Positions 4,620 to 27,543 of a stretch of DNA of 29,933 nt are shown one piece after another. Origin of the DNA: Acetobacter sp. (GTDB lineage: Bacteria; Pseudomonadota; Alphaproteobacteria; RF32; CAG-239). The DNA lies in assembly GCA_023665325.1 (NCBI GenBank), contig JAMPED010000018.1, forward strand, positions 1-29,933. Reading direction: 5' to 3'. The position numbers and the translations under genes are program-made. Under the pieces are notes generated by a model, which worked only from the letters and a program-made list of their open reading frames with translations, was not told the DNA's origin and made no database searches. Position 1 is the stretch's first letter. The number at the start of each line of letters is the position of its first letter.

Positions 4620-5063
4620 TTAAAACAGTGTTTATTGTATGGGAAAATTTTGTAAACTAGGTGCCAGCGGCACGGGCATAACTTTAGCTGCGGTGTGAAG
4701 AGGGAGATCCCTTGACTCAGGGTGCCGGAGTTGGGCACCCTGAGAGGGATGACAGTGAACAGCCGAGGGATGACAGAGGAAAGAGAGTATGTTTTTTGTA
4801 TCTTTTAATATGTCATCGCTCTGAACGTAGTGAAGTCAAGCGATCTCGTGAGAGTATGTTTTATGGATTGCCACGGCGACGTTGTCGCCTCGCAATGACG
4901 GGGGAGGGGGGCTTGGAGTGAGGAGATCCCTTGACGGCTGTTTCACAGCCGAGGGATGACAGGGGAGGGGGGCTTGGAGTGAGGAGATCCCTTGACTCAG
5001 GGTGCCGGAACAGGGCACCCTGAGAGGGATGACAGTGGTGGTGTTCACGATGACGAGGAGGGG
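4620..5063 (+). repeat. Palindromic repeat cluster (F1-F2-F3, F1, F1)
   Basis: Contents in order: half-copy of H2 (4632-4685), F1 (4705-4754), F2 (4811-4856), F3 (4865-4900, GGCGACgttGTCGCC inner stem), F1 (4925-4961, CGGCTGTttcACAGCCG stem) and F1 (4986-5034). Open frames exist across the cluster, but they are translations of the repeats. No gene is seen. Confidence 0.85.
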
Positions 5064-11187: not shown

Positions 11188-11215
11188 TTTACTTTTATGA
11201 ATTTTGTTTTATAGT
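11188..11215 (+). promoter_or_regulatory. Promoter of structured RNA + HTH unit, copy 1
   Basis: TTTACT (11188-11193), 16-nt spacer, TATAGT (11210-11215). The same two boxes and spacing occur in copy 2 at 27041-27068, although the spacer sequence differs. Confidence 0.6.
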
Positions 11216-11221
11216 ATGCGG

Positions 11222-11376
11222 GTCGGCAGAGATGTCGATAGGGCTGTCACAAGCTCTCAAACGTTTTATATCCTTGATTGAAGTCAGGGAGCTTTTGGTT
11301 ATATATTGAAGACCAAGAGAGTCATACGTTTGTGATTTGTGAACTCCCTGACACCTTAAACGGTGTCAGTTTTTTT
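11222..11376 (+). ncRNA. Structured leader RNA with predicted pseudoknot, copy 1
   Basis: About 155 nt from the inferred start to the T-run. Stem A: CACAA (11248-11252) with TTGTG (11337-11341) and CAAACG (11258-11263) with CGTTTG (11327-11332). Hairpin C inside it: CTTTTGGT (11292-11299) with ACCAAGAG (11312-11319). GTCAGGGAG (11283-11291), also inside stem A, pairs with CTCCCTGAC (11344-11352) outside it, forming an H-type pseudoknot (B). The 3' strand of B overlaps the terminator stem by 5 nt. Copy 2 at 27075-27230 preserves all these pairings through compensatory changes. It is not a family I recognise. It could be a ligand- or protein-sensing attenuator for the downstream HTH gene, or an independent small RNA. 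Confidence 0.7.
11348..11376 (+). terminator. Intrinsic terminator of the leader RNA, copy 1
   Basis: CTGACACC (11348-11355), loop TTAAAC, GGTGTCAG (11362-11369), then seven T. It lies 25 bp before the HTH start codon, so the gene needs read-through, and it shares 11348-11352 with the pseudoknot strand. Confidence 0.8.
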
Positions 11377-11401
11377 AACATTAAATATGGAGTTTAAGAT
11401 T

Positions 11402-11689
11402 ATGACATTTACTTTTACATTAGAAGAACTTAACCATCGGCATCAGCGGATGAAAACAATGCGCAAAAAGTTTAAGACTAAAATTGCGGCGGCGTTGTTG
11501 CAGGAGCGCATTTCCCGCAAGCTAAAGCTAGAGGAAGTAAGTACGGCGATAAAGGTTCTTCCGGAACGGATTGAATCGCACGAGCTTGGGATTGGAAAGA
11601 TGCGTTGGGAAGTTATCGGGATGTTGCTTAAGTATTATGGTAAAACGTTTGAGATTACGTTAAAGGATATGCCGCCACAGGAGAAGTGA
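11402..11689 (+). CDS. Small XRE-like HTH protein, copy 1
   Basis: A 95-residue basic protein. Residues 1-30 are a helical arm (TFTLEELNHRHQRMKTMRKKF). Residues 34-80 fit an XRE/Cro-type HTH: AALLQERISRKLKLEEVSTA for the first helices, VLPERIESHELG for the recognition region, then a MRWEVIGMLLKYYG helix; a short KTFEITLKDMPPQEK tail follows. The start at 11402 has GGAG 9 nt upstream. It is identical in protein sequence to 27256-27543, although the genes differ at 14 sites, all silent. It sits behind a structured RNA with terminator; the likely role is a DNA- or RNA-binding regulator, possibly acting on its own leader (inference). F1 begins 3 bp after its stop. Confidence 0.75.
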   Translation: MTFTFTLEELNHRHQRMKTMRKKFKTKIAAALLQERISRKLKLEEVSTAIKVLPERIESHELGIGKMRWEVIGMLLKYYGKTFEITLKDMPPQEK

Positions 11690-12288
11690 TGAGATCCCTT
11701 GACTCAGGGTGCCGGAGTAGGGCACCCTGAGAGGGATGACAAGAGAAGAGAGAGGGATGACACAAAGAAGAGAGTATGGTTTTGTTTCTTTTAATATGTC
11801 ATCGCTCTGAACGAAGTGAAGTCAAGCGATCTCGTGAGAGTATAGTGTGGGGTATTTATGGATTGCCACGTCGCTAACGCTCCTCGCAATGACGATAAAA
11901 AGGGGGATTGCCACGGCGACGTTGTCGCCTCGCAATGACGCTTGGAGCGGCGTGGGGCGAGGAGATCCCTTGACGGGGCGTTGCCCCGAGGGATGACAGA
12001 GGAAAGAGAGTTTTTTTTATATGTCATCGCTCTGAACGCAGTGAAGTCAAGCGATCTCGTGAGAGTATGGATTGCCACGTCGCTAACGCTCCTCGCAATG
12101 ACGGTGCTCTTGGGGCGAGGAGATCCCTTGACTCGGGCAGCAAAGCTGGCTGCCCGAGAGGGATGACAGAGCAGGGCACCCTGAGAGGGATGACAGAGCA
12201 GGGCACCCTGAGAGGGATGACACAGAAAAGAGAGAGGGATGACGGAGAAAAGCGAGAGGGATGACAGTGGTGGTGCCACGGGCAATGA
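11690..12288 (+). repeat. Densest palindromic repeat cluster (two F1-F2-F3 modules, tandem half F1)
   Basis: F1 at 11693-11741, F2 at 11797-11842, F3 at 11861-11894, F3 at 11906-11940, F1 at 11964-11998, F2 at 12022-12067, F3 at 12070-12103, F1 at 12122-12168, then two exact 27-bp right halves in tandem (12169-12195, 12196-12222) and more bare tails. Several open frames on both strands are repeat translations rich in HPS/SRDL/ARVKGSP. No gene is seen in these 599 bp. Confidence 0.88.
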
Positions 12289-13485
12289 TTAGGGGAGGAG
12301 GGGGGAGGCGGTGCGTGGGAGGACGCCTTGGCAATGTGATATCAACATTCCGTAATTGGTGACTTTTACCTCTTGGCGCGTACACTCGTTTAGACGACGG
12401 CGGATTTCGGGGCGTGTTAAAACACAACCGCCACAGTGGATGACCAGAGCGTAATCGGTGAGATTATCTGGAAAGTCGTTGCCGGCGGTGAAAGCAAAGC
12501 TTAATTGTTTGCCGGTGTGTTTTTGCAATAAATTCGGGATTTTGACTCTGCCGATATCATCACAGGTTTGGCGGTGAGAGCAGCCCTCAGCAATTAGTAT
12601 TTTGTCGCCGTCTTTAAGTTCATCTATAGCATAAGCGCCGGCAAGCATCTTTTTGAAATCACCTTTATTTTTGGCAAGGAGCATTGAAAAGGTGGTCAAC
12701 TTTATCTCTTTTGGGGTGAGGGCGGCGACTTCTTTTATGGCTTGCGAATCGGTGATGACTAGCGCTGGTGGCGTTTTTAAGGCAGCGAGTGCAGCGGGGA
12801 GTTCGCTCGTTTGTACTGTCAATGCGAGGGCGTTCATATCTAGCACTTCGCGCAGGGTCTGGGTTTGTGGCATTATTAAGCGTCCTTTAGGCGCGGCGGT
12901 GTCGATGGGGGTGACCAAAATGACGATATCGCCGGTTTGAATGAGTCCGTCTAAGAGCGGTTTGGGGGAGGTTTCGGGCGTGAGCAATGCGGCTATGCGA
13001 GATTTTAGTGCGTCGATGCCGATGCCTGTTTTGGCGGAGACGGTGACCCCTTGGTATTTTTCCATTATGATTTTATCGTATCCTGTGGGTTCACTTAAAT
13101 CTGCATAGTTAAATACTGGAATAAACGGGATTTCTTTTTGTTCAAACTCTTTAAGGCGGCGGTCTATATCTGGGGTGATGCCGTCTTTGCCGATGACGAC
13201 TAAAACCATATCGGCGCGGTTGAGTATCTTTTCGGATGCGCGGACGCGGAGTCTGCCCAATTCGCCCTCATCATCTAAGCCTGCGGTGTCATAAAAACTG
13301 ATTGGTCCGGCGGGGATGAGCTCGTAGGTTTTTATGACGGCATCGGTGGTGGTGCCGAGGGTTTCTGAAACAATCGAAACTTCTTGTCCGGTGATGCGGT
13401 TTAGTAAGGTGGATTTGCCTGCATTACGATTGCCTACGATGGCGACGGTGGTGCGCATTCCGGAATGAGGGAGTACTTTAGTCAT
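12289..13485 (-). CDS. hydF: [FeFe]-hydrogenase maturation GTPase HydF
   Basis: A 398-residue protein. The N-terminal Era-like GTPase has GNRNAGKS (18-25), the SETLGTTTD switch region and DTAG. The C-terminal cluster domain has the HydF signature: CSH (in EGCSHRQTC) then 45 residues then HCGGC, ligands of its [4Fe-4S] cluster. HydF is the scaffold on which HydE and HydG build the 2Fe subcluster before transfer to the hydrogenase HydA. No hydE, hydG or hydA lies in this window. The start at 13485 is chosen because AAAGGA lies about 10 nt upstream and it overlaps the preceding gene by 8 nt (ATGACTAA); a frame to 13524 would overlap by 47. The C-terminus is rich in Pro/Leu and abuts repeats. Confidence 0.95.
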   Translation of the reverse strand: MTKVLPHSGMRTTVAIVGNRNAGKSTLLNRITGQEVSIVSETLGTTTDAVIKTYELIPAGPISFYDTAGLDDEGELGRLRVRASEKILNRADMVLVVIGKDGITPDIDRRLKEFEQKEIPFIPVFNYADLSEPTGYDKIIMEKYQGVTVSAKTGIGIDALKSRIAALLTPETSPKPLLDGLIQTGDIVILVTPIDTAAPKGRLIMPQTQTLREVLDMNALALTVQTSELPAALAALKTPPALVITDSQAIKEVAALTPKEIKLTTFSMLLAKNKGDFKKMLAGAYAIDELKDGDKILIAEGCSHRQTCDDIGRVKIPNLLQKHTGKQLSFAFTAGNDFPDNLTDYALVIHCGGCVLTRPEIRRRLNECTRQEVKVTNYGMLISHCQGVLPRTASPLLP

Positions 13486-16390
13486 TGGGGGGAGTCCTTT
13501 CATTTGTTGTGGCGGGGGCGTCAAAAGTTTCGAGCGCGGTTTGCCAGTTAATTCTATTCAGCCTTGTGGGCAGCTTTAAGCCGTATGGGTGGCGGGTGGT
13601 GAATAAGATATATAATGGTGCGTGGGGGGAGGCGTATTCTTTTAACCACGGTTGTGCGGCTGTTGCCTCGCCTATGGCGGGGATGCGGATGACATTGACG
13701 CCGTCTGCGGAAAGTTGGTGCAGGCTTAGCGAATCTACCGTTGCGGATGGTGACCACGGTGCGGTGATGGCGATGAGGCGTGGTTGATGGTCGGTTTGGT
13801 GGTGGGTATATATTTCTGCCGGTGTGGGCGCGGTTTGAGGGGCGGTGTGTGGCGGGAAATAAGCGATTGTGCCGATGGTTAAGATGGTTAAGACCGTGAG
13901 TATGGCGGCGGCGTGGCGTTGCACTTTATAAAATAGCTGTTGTTGGCGTTTGGAGCTACGGGTATGTTTTAAGGTTTCATCTATGGCTTTGGGGTATAGT
14001 ATCCACAAGCCATAGGTGAGGGCTAGGGTGAGGCTGGTGAGCCATAGAGCGTTTTCACCACGGAAAGTGCCGATGAGCCACAATAAACCAGCGATATAGA
14101 GCAGAGTATATACAATATTGAGGGCGCGCATTGCGTGGAAAAAATTGGGGTTGTTTTGTCTTAAAGTGAGGGTGAGTAAGGGGAGAATCTGCAGTCCTAG
14201 CCATAGCAAGGCGAGGGATTGGAGGGCGGGTTTGAGTGGGGTGCTTAGGATGTGGCTCCAGACAGTGGCGGTGTATGGGAGGGGAAATGCAGTGAGCATC
14301 AAAACGGCAAAAAAGCCAATGAGGAAACCGCGGCGGCAGATTCCCCTTAATGGGCGGAAAAGAGCGAAATCTATTTTGCCAGTGCACTCAGCGAGCATTG
14401 AAACAGCGATGATGCCAGCGATGGCGGTCAGTGGGGCACATTCGTACATCAGGCTCCAGTTATGATGCTTAAAGAGGGTATAGATGAGGGCTAAGCCGGC
14501 GGCGGTGCCTAAGCTGTAACGGAAGTATATGTGGCGACGGTCGTCACGCGTCCAGAACAAAGCAGTGAGGCGGATGAAAAGATAGAAGATGCCGGGGGCT
14601 AGGGTGAGGAGTATGCCGTACAAGAGGGGGATGCCGGTGGGGAGGGAGTGCTCTTGGGGCAGGAGATCCCTTGACTCGGGCAGCAAAGCAGGCTGCCCGA
14701 GAGGGATGACAGTGGTGGCGTTCGCAATGATGGAGGGAGAGGATGGATTGTTTTCCCCCTCACCTGTCCTCTCCCTCCGAGGGGAGAGGGACGCTTGAAG
14801 AGGGAGATCCCTTGACGGCTGTTTCACAGCCGAGGGATGACACAGAAAAGAGGGAGATCCCTTGACGGCTGTTTCACAGCCGAGGGATGACAGGGAGGAG
14901 GTGTTCGCGATGACGGAGGAGGTGGTGGTGCGGAGGGTTTCGTTATTGTCGAAAGTGGCGGTGATGGCGAGGGGGGTGTTGTTAGGGGTGTCAGCCTCAA
15001 GGGGGAAGGTGGCTGTGATTTTTTGGGGGGTGATGGTGTAGCGGGGGGAGAGATAGTTAGTATTGTGTGCGTCTTCGACCATTACGGCAGCGTTGCTGAA
15101 GGTGCGGGTGGTGTTAAAGGTAACGGTTAGGGTATTGGCGGACGAATCGATAATGGCGGACTCGAGAGTTGCGTGTTTGCTTTGCTCAGGGGGAAGGTGG
15201 GTGAACCCTTGGGTGACGTAATTGTTATAGATAGATAATTCTTCGTCAAGTGATGGTTTTAAGGTGAGCTCGTGATGGGTGTTGACAGGGCGGCAAATGC
15301 CGTCTTTATGGCAGAGTTCAAAGCCGAAATCGCCTTTGATGGTCATTGGTTTGTCGGTATCTCTTCTGGTGAACTCAATCGGGTAGCGGACAGTACCGAT
15401 GAGAATCCGTTTGGCTATGCCGTCTTTGACGATGCCATTGGCGGTGGGGAGGAAGAGTTGATATTCTTTTATGTTAAGCTCATTATTTACATCTTCGCTT
15501 AAGAAAAATTGCGGACGGGCGCGTGGGTTTAGATAATCGGCGGTGATGTAGTGGTCTTTGGGGATGTTGATTTGGATGACGCCGCGGATTTTTTCATTAT
15601 CCCCTGGGGCTGAGTATTCAAGCAAAAGGCGCGCGTTGGTGCCGCTTTCGTGCTTGATGGTTACTTCATCACTGCCATCGGTTTGGCGGGGGAGCCCTTG
15701 CATTGCTTTGATAAACGCGGGGATGTCAAACTCGAGAAGTGCTAAGACGATTTCATCCATATTTGTAATACGTCCGGCGTAGTTTTTATCTCGACGGCGG
15801 ACAGGTTCGCCGAGGGCGCCAGGGTCGTATTCTAGATATTTATAAGGTTTGTAGTCGACTTGATACGAATCGTCATCGGTTTGTTTTTTTGCATCAGAAA
15901 ATTCGGGGGCATATTCGCCTTTTTCGGCAATAATTGGGGCGTCTGCGGGGATGATGCCTGAGGCTTTGATACGTTGGCGAAGTGTTTGGGTGACATATGT
16001 ATAGCGGCGTTTGGCACTGATGAAGAGTTTGATGTATTTGCCTAGGGACTCGAGTTTTTCGTATTCGGTATCGGGGAAGAAATATTGCAAGGCGGGCGTG
16101 ATGTCGTCATTGATTTTGCCTGCGGGGTAGAGCTTGTCTATTACAAAGGGAATAAGGAAGAAGGTGGCGATTTGGCTGGTGAGGGTGGGGCGCTTATGCC
16201 TTACGGCGGTGTTCGCAATGACGGGGAAGGATGGATTGTTTTCCCCCTCACCTGTCCTCTCCCTCCGAGGGGAGAGGGACGCTTGAAGAGAGGGCTCTTG
16301 GGGTGTCGGGGAGGCATAGGCTGAGGATGGGTTGAATATCGAGATTATCAACACTATATACGTTAGGAGATAAAATATTGACTTTTTCAT
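13478..16390 (-). CDS. Degenerate DsbD/ScsB-like membrane protein carrying repeat-encoded peptides
   Basis: A 970-residue protein with signal peptide (1-26). Residues 240-380 resemble the DsbD alpha domain, with the C-x5-C pair CHKDGIC (C360, C366). Residues 586-815 hold about eight membrane helices; where DsbD has LTPCVLP this one reads LAPGIFYL, so that core cysteine is missing. The C-terminal 100 residues look like a thioredoxin fold in which WCxxC is WSPSA (879-883). Full electron relay from thioredoxin is therefore unlikely. Residues about 31-55 and 495-580 are translated F1/F4 repeats. It overlaps hydF by 8 nt, so the two are co-translated; a link to metallo-enzyme maturation or redox is inference. 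No good ribosome site is visible before the 16390 start. Confidence 0.65.
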   Translation of the reverse strand: MKKSIFYLLTYIVLIISIFNPSSAYASPTPQEPSLQASLSPRRERTGEGENNPSFPVIANTAVRHKRPTLTSQIATFFLIPFVIDKLYPAGKINDDITPALQYFFPDTEYEKLESLGKYIKLFISAKRRYTYVTQTLRQRIKASGIIPADAPIIAEKGEYAPEFSDAKKQTDDDSYQVDYKPYKYLEYDPGALGEPVRRRDKNYAGRITNMDEIVLALLEFDIPAFIKAMQGLPRQTDGSDEVTIKHESGTNARLLLEYSAPGDNEKIRGVIQINIPKDHYITADYLNPRARPQFFLSEDVNNELNIKEYQLFLPTANGIVKDGIAKRILIGTVRYPIEFTRRDTDKPMTIKGDFGFELCHKDGICRPVNTHHELTLKPSLDEELSIYNNYVTQGFTHLPPEQSKHATLESAIIDSSANTLTVTFNTTRTFSNAAVMVEDAHNTNYLSPRYTITPQKITATFPLEADTPNNTPLAITATFDNNETLRTTTSSVIANTSSLSSLGCETAVKGSPSFLCHPSAVKQPSRDLPLQASLSPRRERTGEGENNPSSPSIIANATTVIPLGQPALLPESRDLLPQEHSLPTGIPLLYGILLTLAPGIFYLFIRLTALFWTRDDRRHIYFRYSLGTAAGLALIYTLFKHHNWSLMYECAPLTAIAGIIAVSMLAECTGKIDFALFRPLRGICRRGFLIGFFAVLMLTAFPLPYTATVWSHILSTPLKPALQSLALLWLGLQILPLLTLTLRQNNPNFFHAMRALNIVYTLLYIAGLLWLIGTFRGENALWLTSLTLALTYGLWILYPKAIDETLKHTRSSKRQQQLFYKVQRHAAAILTVLTILTIGTIAYFPPHTAPQTAPTPAEIYTHHQTDHQPRLIAITAPWSPSATVDSLSLHQLSADGVNVIRIPAIGEATAAQPWLKEYASPHAPLYILFTTRHPYGLKLPTRLNRINWQTALETFDAPATTNERTPPND
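14665..14892 (+). repeat. Three F1 and one F4 repeats inserted in frame in the DsbD-like gene
   Basis: F1 at 14665-14711 (CGGGCAGC stem), F4 at about 14750-14794, F1 at 14806-14842 and 14856-14892 (CGGCTGT stems). The minus-strand translation repeats the peptides seen in MutL (ETAVKGSP, HPSAVKQPSRDL, SPRRERTGEGENN). The insertion lies between the periplasmic domain and the first membrane helix. Confidence 0.88.
16190..16292 (+). repeat. F3 right half and F4 repeat in the DsbD-like N-terminus
   Basis: A right-half F3 (CTTATGCCTTACGGCGG then CGCAATGACGG) at 16193-16223 and F4 at 16238-16290. Together they encode residues about 31-65, immediately after the predicted signal-peptide cleavage site. 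Confidence 0.8.
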
Positions 16391-22569: not shown

Positions 22570-22612
22570 AGTTAAGTTATTCTTGATAATAATAACAAAA
22601 AGGAGAAGAATT

Positions 22613-24139
22613 TTGAAAAATTCCAATTTACTTGATTATTTGTATGACTGCAGATGGTGCAGTTTTAAAGAAGATATCCGTAATAATGCTGTTTGCGATG
22701 TGGTTTTAGAGAAGAAAACCTTTGATGATGGACGAAAACTATTTGTGCTCGGGCAAGCTTTGGGTGCGGATGGAAAACCGCGCTTTTTTTCAATGCCTCT
22801 TCAGCGTAAAGGGGCTATTCCGCAGGATGGTAAGTTTGTCGTGTTAAATGGCGAAATTTATACGGATGCTCTTTTGGAACCGGATTTTTGGCAGAGTTGG
22901 AACAGACTGATTGCGGAAAATGATGGTTTTGTGCGGTTTGATAATGGCTGGACACTTGAGGCAGTTTCTTTTTCAGAAGAAACAGTTGTTGCGGATAATG
23001 CAGATGAGTATTCGAAACCGCTTGGGGTTGAACAAAGCAATACAACACTTAATGTGGGTGGCAAAATTGCGTTTAAGCTGGAACGGATGATTGAATTTTC
23101 GGACGATATAAACTCTGAATTTGAGATGAACCAAAAGCTGATGCGTGAAGGTTGTCGTGTTATGCCGAAGACTTACAGCGGTTATGTGTGGCGGCAACCA
23201 AATGGTCAACAAGCAGCGGCGGGAATTGTGCAAGAATTTGTGCCGAATCGGGGCGATTTGTGGAACTATGCGCTTAACTATTTGGAAGAAAAGTTGAAAG
23301 ATGGATATTTGCATCAGCGTGTTTTGAAGGCTGAAGATAATCAATCGTTTATGCGTGTTGTTCGTAATCTTTCTGAAAAAACAAGAGAGATGGGGGAATG
23401 TTTGTCACGTATGGATGAAAACCCAAATTTTATGCCTGAAGATGTTAATGATGGATTTATTCGTGGGTATGGCAAGCAGATGGATGTGTTGCTTTATAAA
23501 ACACAACGGGCGATTGCGCTTAATCTGGACAGGTTGCCGGAGCCTACTCGTTCACAGGCGGCGGAACTTTTGAAAAACTGGAATGAGCTGACAAGTGATT
23601 TTGTGGGGCGGCGGATGTCGCAAATTCGTATGATGGAAAACAAAGGAACGATTAACCGTGTGCACGGAGATTTTCATCTGGGGCAGGTTATGGTGACTAA
23701 AGATGAGGATTTGCGTTTTATTGATTTTGCTGGAGAGCCGGATTTGCCGATGGAACAACGCAAGCAAAAGCATATTTTTGTGCGTGATGTGGCGGGAATG
23801 TATCGCTCAATTAAGGGATATTTAGGCGCTGTGGCGGTGGAGAACTTTGCGGCGAGCGCGCCGTCTGCTGAAGTTGCTGCTGAACGTAAGGTTTGGGCTG
23901 GAAAAGCTATTAAGCCGTTGATTGATAGTGCTTCTCGCGCATTTTTGGGTGAGAAAAAAGTGAATGATCCGTGGCTTAGCTTAGAGATTTTGCGTAAGAA
24001 TCTTTATGAAGTCAACTATGAGGTGAACAATCGCCCTCAGATGGCGTATGTGCCGATTAGTGGATTGTCTGAGTTGCTGGTTCCACCGTCTGCGGCTAAT
24101 ATGAATATTAAGAGTATTGATAACTCAAACGTTATTTAG
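22613..24139 (+). CDS. Maltokinase-like phosphotransferase
   Basis: A 508-residue protein with a TTG start at 22613, chosen because AAGGAG ends 8 nt upstream; another TTG at 22583 lies before that site. The N-terminus (LLDYLYDCRWCSFKEDIRNN) resembles the 'RWf..K' cap region of maltokinases. The C-terminal APH-type kinase lobe has INRVHGDFHLGQVM (catalytic Asp region near 351-360), RFIDFAGEP (DFx metal site, Asp371) and KQKHIFVRDVAGMYRSIKGY, as in Mak/Pep2. Maltokinase makes maltose-1-phosphate for GlgE glucan synthesis. Divergence from malQ supports a maltodextrin role. The segment around 165-215 (MNQKLMREGCRVMPKTYSGY) matches the nucleotide-binding part. No glgE or treS is in the window, so substrate is inferred. 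Confidence 0.8.
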   Translation: MKNSNLLDYLYDCRWCSFKEDIRNNAVCDVVLEKKTFDDGRKLFVLGQALGADGKPRFFSMPLQRKGAIPQDGKFVVLNGEIYTDALLEPDFWQSWNRLIAENDGFVRFDNGWTLEAVSFSEETVVADNADEYSKPLGVEQSNTTLNVGGKIAFKLERMIEFSDDINSEFEMNQKLMREGCRVMPKTYSGYVWRQPNGQQAAAGIVQEFVPNRGDLWNYALNYLEEKLKDGYLHQRVLKAEDNQSFMRVVRNLSEKTREMGECLSRMDENPNFMPEDVNDGFIRGYGKQMDVLLYKTQRAIALNLDRLPEPTRSQAAELLKNWNELTSDFVGRRMSQIRMMENKGTINRVHGDFHLGQVMVTKDEDLRFIDFAGEPDLPMEQRKQKHIFVRDVAGMYRSIKGYLGAVAVENFAASAPSAEVAAERKVWAGKAIKPLIDSASRAFLGEKKVNDPWLSLEILRKNLYEVNYEVNNRPQMAYVPISGLSELLVPPSAANMNIKSIDNSNVI

Positions 24140-26806: not shown

Positions 26807-27040
26807 GTGGTTGTATGCGAGGTGCGCGGGGCGGAGGAGGGACGCTTGGAGGGGGAGGCGTGTGGAGTGGGAGATCCCTTGACTCAGGGTGCCGGAGCAG
26901 GGCACCCTGAGAGGGATGACACAGAGAAGAGAGTTCTTTTAATATGTCATCGCTCTGAGCGTAGCGAAGTCAAGCGATCTGGTGAGGGTATAGATTGCCA
27001 CGTCGCTAACGCTCCTCGCAATGACGGTGGAAAAATTAAC
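26807..27040 (+). repeat. Palindromic repeat module F1-F2-F3
   Basis: F1 at 26873-26921 (CAGGGTGCC stem), F2 at 26945-26990, F3 at 26993-27027. The module directly abuts the promoter of RNA+HTH copy 2, as the module at 10998-11173 does for copy 1. Confidence 0.87.
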
Positions 27041-27068
27041 TTTACTTTTATGATTTCTGTTTTATAGT
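27041..27068 (+). promoter_or_regulatory. Promoter of structured RNA + HTH unit, copy 2
   Basis: TTTACT (27041-27046), 16-nt spacer, TATAGT (27063-27068); boxes are identical to copy 1. Confidence 0.6.
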
Positions 27069-27074
27069 ATGTGG

Positions 27075-27230
27075 GTCGGCAGAGATGTCGATAGGGCTGT
27101 CACAAGCTCTCCAAAGAATAATCCTTGATTAAAGTCAGGGAGCTTATGGTTATATATTGAAGACCATAAGAGTCATACTTTGGTGATTTGTGAACTCCCT
27201 GGCGCTGGATTTTCTAGCGTCAGTTTTTTT
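27075..27230 (+). ncRNA. Structured leader RNA with predicted pseudoknot, copy 2
   Basis: Same architecture as copy 1. Stem A: CACAA/TTGTG (27101-27105/27188-27192) and CCAAAG/CTTTGG (27111-27116/27178-27183). Hairpin C: CTTATGGT/ACCATAAG (27143-27150/27163-27170). Pseudoknot B: GTCAGGGAG/CTCCCTGGC (27134-27142/27195-27203, one G-U). Relative to copy 1, stem A has two double compensatory changes, C has one plus a G-U to A-U, B has U-A to U-G, and the terminator has two double changes. The first 40 nt after the start (GGGTCGGCAGAGATGTCG onward) and the loop TATATATTGAAG are invariant, suggesting tertiary or ligand contacts. Confidence 0.7.
27199..27230 (+). terminator. Intrinsic terminator of the leader RNA, copy 2
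   Basis: CTGGCGCT (27199-27206), loop, AGCGTCAG (27216-27223), then seven T. It shares 27199-27203 with the pseudoknot strand. Confidence 0.8.
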
Positions 27231-27255: not shown

Positions 27256-27543
27256 ATGACATTTACTTTTACATTAGAAGAACTTAACCATCGGCATCAG
27301 CGGATGAAAACAATGCGCAAAAAGTTTAAGACTAAAATTGCGGCGGCGTTGTTGCAGGAGCGTATTTCCCGCAAGCTTAAGCTAGAGGAAGTAAGTACGG
27401 CGATTAAAGTTTTGCCGGAGCGGATTGAATCGCACGAGCTTGGGATTGGAAAAATGCGTTGGGAAGTTATCGGGATGTTGCTCAAGTATTACGGGAAGAC
27501 GTTTGAGATTACGTTGAAGGATATGCCGCCGCAGGAGAAGTGA
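27256..27543 (+). CDS. Small XRE-like HTH protein, copy 2
   Basis: A 95-residue protein identical to the one at 11402-11689. The first 108 nt of the two genes are identical; the remaining 180 nt differ at 14 sites in 13 codons, every one silent. GGAG lies 9 nt upstream of the 27256 start. F1 begins 3 bp after the stop, as in copy 1. The unchanged protein over silently diverged DNA shows selection on the protein, so both copies are likely functional or the protein is kept alike by its partner RNA. Confidence 0.75.
   Translation: MTFTFTLEELNHRHQRMKTMRKKFKTKIAAALLQERISRKLKLEEVSTAIKVLPERIESHELGIGKMRWEVIGMLLKYYGKTFEITLKDMPPQEK

What the first reader, a model, noticed from the sequence alone, without database searches (positions are those of the whole stretch)
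11222..11376. Structured RNA whose two copies differ by compensatory changes and form a terminator-competing pseudoknot
Comparing 11222-11376 with 27075-27230, every predicted helix survives sequence change. Stem A: CAAACG/CGTTTG versus CCAAAG/CTTTGG (two base pairs swapped on both sides). Hairpin C: CTTTTGGT/ACCAAGAG versus CTTATGGT/ACCATAAG. Terminator: CTGACACC/GGTGTCAG versus CTGGCGCT/AGCGTCAG. The strand CTCCCTGRC can pair either with GTCAGGGAG inside stem A (pseudoknot) or with the terminator's 3' arm, not both. This is the logic of an attenuator or riboswitch, and I recognise no known family. The invariant 5' segment and the TATATATTGAAG loop are candidate recognition sites.
Basis: partly seen in the sequence, partly recalled or inferred. 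Interest (0 to 1): 0.88.

Follow-up and report, generated by a model that had tools for sequence, protein, structure and literature searches.

The report
Many-copy pseudoknotted leader RNA family
A folded RNA in front of a small DNA-binding-protein gene belongs to a large, uncatalogued family of RNA leaders that recurs in many copies per genome across a group of bacteria, and it looks like a distant cousin of a little-understood RNA called sRNA-Xcc1.

Summary
A covariance model built without the window finds this RNA in 121 of 134 genomes of one bacterial order and finds both window copies. "Terminator-competing" is weak: 2-5 nt overlap, no conserved antiterminator seen. The RNA has a promoter-like start and a terminator, and in most loci checked precedes a small HTH gene, HipB/XRE-like by predicted fold. 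No Rfam family reaches threshold, yet the core has the layout of sRNA-Xcc1 (RF02221), with weak hits both ways. In 30 RF02221 loci the hairpin-D loop and linker match an upstream module (24/30) and often the stretch before the next gene (18/30); the window type keeps the first match and lacks the second. Best reading: a self-coded, leaky leader RNA for an HTH gene. Whether read-through is conditional is untested.

The parts
11188..11215 (+). promoter-like site TTTACT-N16-TATAGT, copy 1
   Evidence: sequence; a TTGnnn-N15-19-TAnnnT site lies upstream in 73 of 89 relatives against 10% of shuffles
11222..11239 (+). hairpin 1 (GTCGGCA/TGTCGAT)
11240..11264 (+). 5-prime module: strand 1 (11240-11245), P1 (11247-11252), strand 2 (about 11253-11257), A (11258-11264)
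11271..11290 (+). hairpin B, strands 3:4 (TCCTTGAT/GTCAGGGA), alternative to helix 4:5
11292..11319 (+). hairpin C with conserved TATATATTGAAG-type loop
11319..11338 (+). hairpin D (GAGTCATA/TGTGATTT); its loop holds A' (11326-11332), complementary to A
11337..11342 (+). linker P1' (TTGTGA), complementary to P1
11344..11352 (+). strand 5 (CTCCCTGAC), partner of strand 4
11348..11376 (+). intrinsic terminator CTGACACC/GGTGTCAG with T-run
11389..11392 (+). Shine-Dalgarno GGAG
   Evidence: sequence
11402..11689 (+). 95-aa HTH protein gene, HipB/XRE-like by predicted fold
27041..27068 (+). promoter-like site, copy 2
   Evidence: sequence
27075..27230 (+). second copy of the RNA with terminator (27199-27209/27213-27223)
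27256..27543 (+). second HTH gene, encoding the same 95 aa

Best explanation
It is a member of a multi-copy family of pseudoknotted leader RNAs in front of small HipB/XRE-like HTH genes. SHOWN from sequence: a promoter-like site; a 5-prime module (strand 1, P1, strand 2, strand A); a core (helix 4:5, hairpins C and D) whose D loop and linker are complementary to A and P1; an intrinsic terminator; the Shine-Dalgarno site; the HTH gene. INFERRED: most transcripts end at the terminator and release a stable RNA of about 148 nt, and the HTH protein is made from read-through transcripts, since the 25 nt between T-run and start codon leave no room for another promoter. Whether the module pairs with the core (A:A', P1:P1') or the local hairpins form is the likely switch; its read-outs would be read-through and, in read-through RNA, whether AACTCC of strand 5 covers GGAGTT of the ribosome-binding site. 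The conserved hairpin C loop is the likely docking site for a protein or other partner. In the distant sRNA-Xcc1 relatives the same two segments also match the ribosome-binding region of the next gene, which suggests an antisense-type control that the window type lacks.
For: Covariation of P1, A, C and terminator: 24 of 25 pairs with double changes over 56 sequences, and 19 of 26 over 19 sequences including the window. Module-guide match: 81 of 89 own loci against 184 of 7832 crossed. Promoter-like site 73 of 89 vs 10%. RNA found in 121 of 134 genomes of the order; 21 of 27 loci found by the RNA alone have a profile-level HTH gene next. R1 finds both window copies. z -6.4 and -6.2. SD GGAGC occurs only with GCTCC (9 of 18), never with ACTCC (0 of 59).
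Against: No antiterminator covaries with the terminator arms. The locus-specific part of the SD to strand 5 match is small (5.84 vs 5.53 nt; permutation P 0.0008 without removing kinship). A crude rule finds a T-run hairpin after the core in only 44 of 89 relatives, although the aligned terminator pairs in 96.8% of cells. 21 of 114 HTH hits showed no core by regex; 8 of 89 leaders lack a good module match. L257 has the RNA before a gene that is not HTH-like. No transcript data.
Confidence: 0.6

Rival explanations
1. A stand-alone trans-acting or protein-binding RNA with a constitutive terminator; the HTH gene is a low-level read-through partner, as in type III toxin-antitoxin or AbiF/RCd22-type pairs, and the HTH protein may bind the RNA or the shared promoter.
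For: Compact RNA with its own promoter-like site and terminator; no visible antiterminator; the relative sRNA-Xcc1 is a mapped 88-nt RNA (PMC2996969, passages).
Against: In most loci checked the RNA is directly followed by an HTH gene; the protein models as a HipB/XRE DNA-binding fold, not a known toxin; no second code site beyond chance in the window.
Confidence: 0.28
2. A ligand-sensing riboswitch whose aptamer is the hairpin C loop and pseudoknot, with the terminator as expression platform.
For: Conserved hairpin C loop within variable stems and helix 4:5; terminator before the gene.
Against: Next genes are regulators rather than metabolic genes; no covarying switch between aptamer and terminator; tens of copies per genome would be unusual for one ligand (recalled).
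Confidence: 0.08
3. A repeat or mobile element whose helices are by-products of copying between paralogues, with little regulatory role.
For: L069 and L070 have identical CDS but different A codes; over 55 close paralogue pairs A' differs at 0.52 of sites against 0.31 at synonymous sites; loop and linker codes recur and reassort within genomes.
Against: Pairing is kept in 94.5-99.2% of cells across an order while other positions stay fixed, which needs selection.
Confidence: 0.04

Closest known systems
sRNA-Xcc1 (Rfam RF02221); reported upstream of symE in Xanthomonas integron cassettes (PMC12444791, passages)
   Same: Order of elements: outer helix, hairpin C, hairpin D, linker, closing strand; D loop and linker complementary to an upstream module; small gene just downstream on the same strand.
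   Different: Window copy 1 scores 28.3 bits against a cut-off of 53, copy 2 not listed up to E 10. RF02221 loci often have a terminator-like hairpin between module and core (20 of 30, vs 5 of 89) and often a second code before the next gene (18 of 30, vs 3 of 89, chance level).
Transcription attenuators and terminator riboswitches (kind)
   Same: Promoter-like site, structured leader, terminator, gene.
   Different: No covarying antiterminator; ligand unknown.
AbiF/RCd22 and type III toxin-antitoxin RNAs (PMC12373285, abstract and outline)
   Same: Structured RNA associated with a small gene.
   Different: Protein here is an HTH of HipB/XRE fold, not an Abi or known RNase toxin; RNA not built of tandem repeats; RNA-protein binding untested.
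HTH-XRE RNA motif (name recalled; search listed no paper)
   Same: RNA structure upstream of XRE-type HTH genes (recalled).
   Different: Recalled as clostridial; the Rfam scans listed no such family.

Membership tests
RF02221 sRNA-Xcc1 | score at or above the Rfam gathering cut-off (53 bits) | tested here: not met
   copy 1 28.3 bits; copy 2 not listed up to E 10; no RF02221 match at E<=1 in 14 and 18 relative loci
RF02221 sRNA-Xcc1 | outer helix enclosing hairpin C and hairpin D with a short linker before the closing strand | tested here: met
   full-length model match 1-87; helices
RF02221 sRNA-Xcc1 | upstream module complementary to D loop and linker (feature found here, not part of the Rfam model) | tested here: met
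   RF02221 loci 24/30 vs 56/870 crossed; window order 81/89 vs 184/7832
RF02221 sRNA-Xcc1 | code repeated before the next gene (feature found here) | tested here: not met
   RF02221 loci 18/30 vs 79/870; window order 3/89 vs 205/7832
RF02221 sRNA-Xcc1 | mutual recognition by covariance models | tested here: inconclusive
   R1 finds 6 of 30 RF02221 loci at the right place at E<1 (4 at E<0.01, two of them near-identical), one further hit at a wrong place (E 0.91), none of 8 unrelated loci up to E 10
Attenuator / terminator riboswitch | promoter and intrinsic terminator before the gene on one transcript | tested here: met
   sequence; promoter-like 73/89; no transcript data
Attenuator / terminator riboswitch | conserved antiterminator exclusive with the terminator | tested here: not met
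   terminator arms pair only with each other among the 60 pairs listed per alignment; overlap with strand 5 is 2-5 nt
Attenuator / terminator riboswitch | conditional read-through or ligand binding | not testable with these tools
   needs Term-seq or probing
Type III toxin-antitoxin | RNA of tandem repeats upstream of an endoribonuclease toxin | tested here: not met
   single-unit RNA; protein models as HipB/XRE fold
Type III toxin-antitoxin | RNA binds and neutralises the protein | not testable with these tools
   needs binding assay
Type I toxin-antitoxin (SymE/SymR) | antitoxin RNA encoded on the opposite strand of the gene | tested here: not met
   RNA lies upstream on the same strand

The most novel reading that the evidence does not exclude
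The window RNA and sRNA-Xcc1 are two branches of one undescribed superfamily of self-coded guide RNAs. Each locus carries a two-part variable code, once in the hairpin-D loop and linker (guide) and once in an upstream module. In the Xcc1 branch the code also stands at the ribosome-binding region of the adjacent gene, so the guide toggles between module (gene on) and ribosome-binding site (gene off). In one order of small-genome bacteria this has expanded to as many as twenty or more leaders per genome, mostly in front of HTH regulators.
Probability: 0.45. Interest if true: 0.9.

Novelty: new variant of a known kind. Interest (0 to 1): 0.77.

Why it matters
A pseudoknotted RNA found in about nine of ten sampled genomes of one order, with up to 22 matches (the scoring limit) in 1.4-Mb genomes, and in no Rfam family at threshold, points to a regulatory layer that annotation misses. 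It also gives sRNA-Xcc1, described in 2010, a directly testable target: the ribosome-binding region of its own neighbour gene (SymE in some loci), with an upstream module as built-in competitor. The variable matched codes look like natural paired switches that can be tested one by one.

Tried and rejected
Exact 23-mer and 17-mer searches of viral contigs: no match or eight matches in unrelated sequence. blastn and tblastn in phages and plasmids for the unit or the HTH: none. A consensus stretch of RF02221 in plasmids: none. HTH scans of genome contigs and viral contigs: none confirmed. A wrong order: 0 of 343 genomes; an order with one genome held: 0 of 1. Leader peptide: a 5-prime ORF is frame-shifted between the two copies (read by eye), rejected. 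Strict avoidance of identical codes within a genome: 3 identical joint codes against about 4.2 expected in three genomes, not supported. Decayed HTH copies: the stops reported seem to lie upstream of the real starts (my reading), not pursued. A second code site before the gene in the window type: chance level. Kinship was not removed from the SD to strand 5 test.

Rows dropped. Of 114 HTH hits, 93 had the core by regex. 89 non-redundant ones with at most 85 nt from GGGAG to CTCCC were used, and 86. A4 used 19 of 22 group-1 leaders (L057, L072, L113 left out for a different 5-prime region). A5 used 56 of 64 non-redundant group-2 leaders (L022, L023, L039, L045, L116, L118, L129, L131 left out). 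One search compared 54 and 18 rows after removing near-identical ones and printed 60 pairs each. One search used 73 parsed entries and 55 of 132 pairs (aa identity 0.80 or more; 45 printed). One search parsed 55 of 59 fetched copies. RF02221 tests used the 30 loci fetched of 35 matches listed. Genomes searched: 134 of 160 asked, 347 of 360, 321 of 350. In one search strand 5 of the RF02221 loci was located by best complementarity to strand 4, which favours pairing there, and the strands of seven divergent loci were picked by eye.

Full report
THE OBSERVATION. Folded without pseudoknots, both give the same shape with z-scores of -6.4 and -6.2: hairpin 1, a long-range stem made of P1 and stem A, hairpins B and C inside it, then the terminator. 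The duplicated unit starts before a promoter-like TTTACT-N16-TATAGT and ends after a 95-aa gene. The intergenic DNA around it is packed with repeats.

FINDING RELATIVES. The window's genome is not held. The 95-aa protein has 12 clusters at E<=0.001 in a database of 5.8 billion proteins when searched with an alignment (9 at E<=0.01 with the single sequence). From a genome handle for E. coli, MutL and HydF of the window led to an unnamed order of small genomes (0.6-2.0 Mb; Alphaproteobacteria is my inference, no call names it). There 51 of 153 genomes hold relatives of the HTH gene at E<=1e-6, two with 12 or 13 matches. Upstream of these genes stands the same RNA: 93 of 114 HTH hits in the fetched loci and window have the GGGAG...CTCCC core. 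The other 21 include contig ends and variant strands; I did not resolve each one.

THE FAMILY STRUCTURE. Reading 5-prime to 3-prime: promoter-like site (73 of 89 relatives vs 10% of shuffles); hairpin 1; strand 1; P1; strand 2; A; strand 3; strand 4 (GGGGAG, or GTCAGGGAG in the window type); hairpin C with a conserved A/U-rich loop; hairpin D whose loop holds A'; linker P1'; strand 5 (CTCCC); terminator; T-run; Shine-Dalgarno; HTH gene. An unguided scan of all column pairs ranks P1:P1', hairpin C, the terminator and A:A' on top; unpaired column pairs that reflect kinship also appear lower in the list. Counts on the named structure: A5, 56 sequences, 94.5% of cells paired, 24 of 25 pairs with double changes, covariation 0.719 vs 0.217 in shuffles and at most 0.174 when slid; A4, 19 sequences including both window copies, 99.2%, 19 of 26 pairs, 0.662 vs 0.202. 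Shuffles do not keep relatedness; the slid control does.

THE PSEUDOKNOT. In the 89 leaders of the window's order its sixth pair is G-C in 63, A-U in 22 and U-A in 1; adding seven divergent loci (strands picked by eye) brings compensatory changes at pairs 3 and 5; in 30 RF02221 loci 7 of 9 pairs show double changes, with strand 5 located by complementarity, which favours that. Because the helix crosses A and P1, a pseudoknot is supported. Strand 4 also has other partners (hairpin B; 11251-11258), so rearrangement is possible. The terminator overlaps strand 5 by 5 nt in copy 1 and about 2 nt in most relatives; in the 60 pairs printed per alignment its arms pair only with each other, and a wholesale antiterminator is not seen.

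COPY NUMBER AND CONTEXT. A covariance model from A5 (R1) finds the RNA in 121 of 134 genomes of the order at E<=1e-3, with up to 22 matches, which is the number of candidates scored per genome, and in 17 of 347 genomes drawn from the class at E<=1e-4, at least four of which are in the order's list. Its two best hits in a mixed set are the window copies (E 2.6e-8 and 3.4e-7). Of 27 loci found by the RNA alone, 21 first ORFs match the HTH profile; L167 and L175 look HTH-like by eye; L170 is a tandem RNA; L173, L176 and L178 are unclear. L257 carries the RNA before a gene that does not look like an HTH. The HTH protein has no Pfam match above cut-off; its model (mean pLDDT 80) resembles HipB and XRE regulators (best Foldseek E 8.5e-3, none at E<=0.001).

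RELATION TO sRNA-Xcc1. RF02221 hits copy 1 over its full length at 28.3 bits against a cut-off of 53, E 0.0028 for that short stretch; over the whole window this would not stand out. Copy 2 is not listed up to E 10, nor are 14 and 18 relative loci at E<=1. RF02221 rings in 21 of 321 genomes of another class, 11 above the cut-off. Their layout is the same, and an upstream module GGAG-[P1]-CTCC-[A] precedes the core in many of them, which the Rfam model does not include. A two-part complementarity test (match sum of 11 nt or more, in order) gives 24 of 30 for the own upstream stretch against 56 of 870 crossed loci, and 18 of 30 for the own stretch after the core against 79 of 870. With 18 loci above the cut-off and crosses between different genomes it gives 15 of 18 vs 26 of 288, and 14 of 18 vs 37 of 288. 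With Shine-Dalgarno motifs masked the effect shrinks but stays: matches of 6 nt or more in 12 of 30 (linker; 14.3% crossed) and 6 of 30 (loop; 9.3% crossed), and none of 5000 permutations reaches the observed means. Twenty of 30 have a terminator-like hairpin between module and core, against 5 of 89 in the window type; the same crude rule finds one after the core in 2 of 30 and 44 of 89. Downstream genes are varied small proteins; two of nine RF02221-locus proteins sent to Pfam are SymE, in line with the cassette report (PMC12444791, passages). sRNA-Xcc1 was mapped as 88 nt (PMC2996969, passages), about the length of the Rfam model, so the upstream module would not be in that RNA. For the window type the module code holds in 81 of 89 (vs 184 of 7832), but the code before the gene is at chance (3 of 89 vs 205 of 7832). 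R1 finds 6 of 30 RF02221 loci at the right place at E<1 (4 at E<0.01, two of these near-identical), one more at a wrong place (E 0.91), and none of 8 unrelated loci. I take this as distant kinship, not membership.

HOW IT LIKELY WORKS. Transcription starts at the promoter-like site, the RNA folds, and most polymerases stop at the terminator, releasing a compact RNA. The HTH protein comes from read-through; 25 nt between T-run and start codon leave no room for another promoter. The module-core pairing is the variable part of each locus and is the likely switch. In read-through RNA strand 5 (ACTCC or GCTCC) can cover the Shine-Dalgarno GGAGT or GGAGC: GGAGC occurs only with GCTCC (9 of 18) and never with ACTCC (0 of 59), but kinship is not removed and the locus-specific gain is small (5.84 vs 5.53 nt). 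All of this paragraph is inference.

EVOLUTION. In 55 close paralogue pairs the A' segment differs at 0.52 of sites, the linker at 0.30, synonymous sites at 0.31; L069 and L070 have identical genes but different A codes. Codes recur and reassort within three genomes, without avoiding identity more than chance. Copying of inner tracts between paralogues would explain changes on both sides in one step; selection on pairing is still needed to explain conservation across the order.

LITERATURE. Searches for sRNA-Xcc1 (18 papers), sRNA-Xcc1 with symE (1), RF02221 (2), HTH-XRE RNA (0), SymE with integron or antisense terms (263 papers, 10 listed) and a six-term motif search (3) showed nothing, in titles, abstract starts and the passages I read, that describes the window family or a match between sRNA-Xcc1 and its neighbour's ribosome-binding region. 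The 2011 sRNA-Xcc1 paper is not held, so this is not proof that it is unreported.

Noticed in passing
window 1-29933, e.g. 4700-4783, 11687-11770, 26867-26950: The intergenic DNA is crowded with several families of palindromic repeats (such as GATCCCTTGAC...GAGGGATGAC and GATTGCCACG...CGCAATGACG), up to 13 copies per family in 30 kb.
   Followed up: no
L049, between hairpin D and the CTCC strand: One leader copy is split by a ~220-bp insertion with inverted ends, like a small non-autonomous mobile element.
   Followed up: no
L057, L072, L113: Three group-1 leaders have an unrelated, mutually similar 5-prime region in place of the module.
   Followed up: no
L257 (G668:C57:3074-3251): A divergent RNA copy stands before a gene that looks like a membrane or lipoprotein gene rather than an HTH gene.
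   Followed up: no
L097; G1078:C24:36422-36850; G1078:C13:26347-26780: Leader copies occur in tandem.
   Followed up: no
window 13478-16390 (-) and 22583-24139 (+): Frames of 970 and 518 aa have no Pfam match at E<=0.001.
   Followed up: no
L132-L161: RF02221 RNAs precede several unrelated kinds of small protein besides SymE, most of those tested without a Pfam match.
   Followed up: partly
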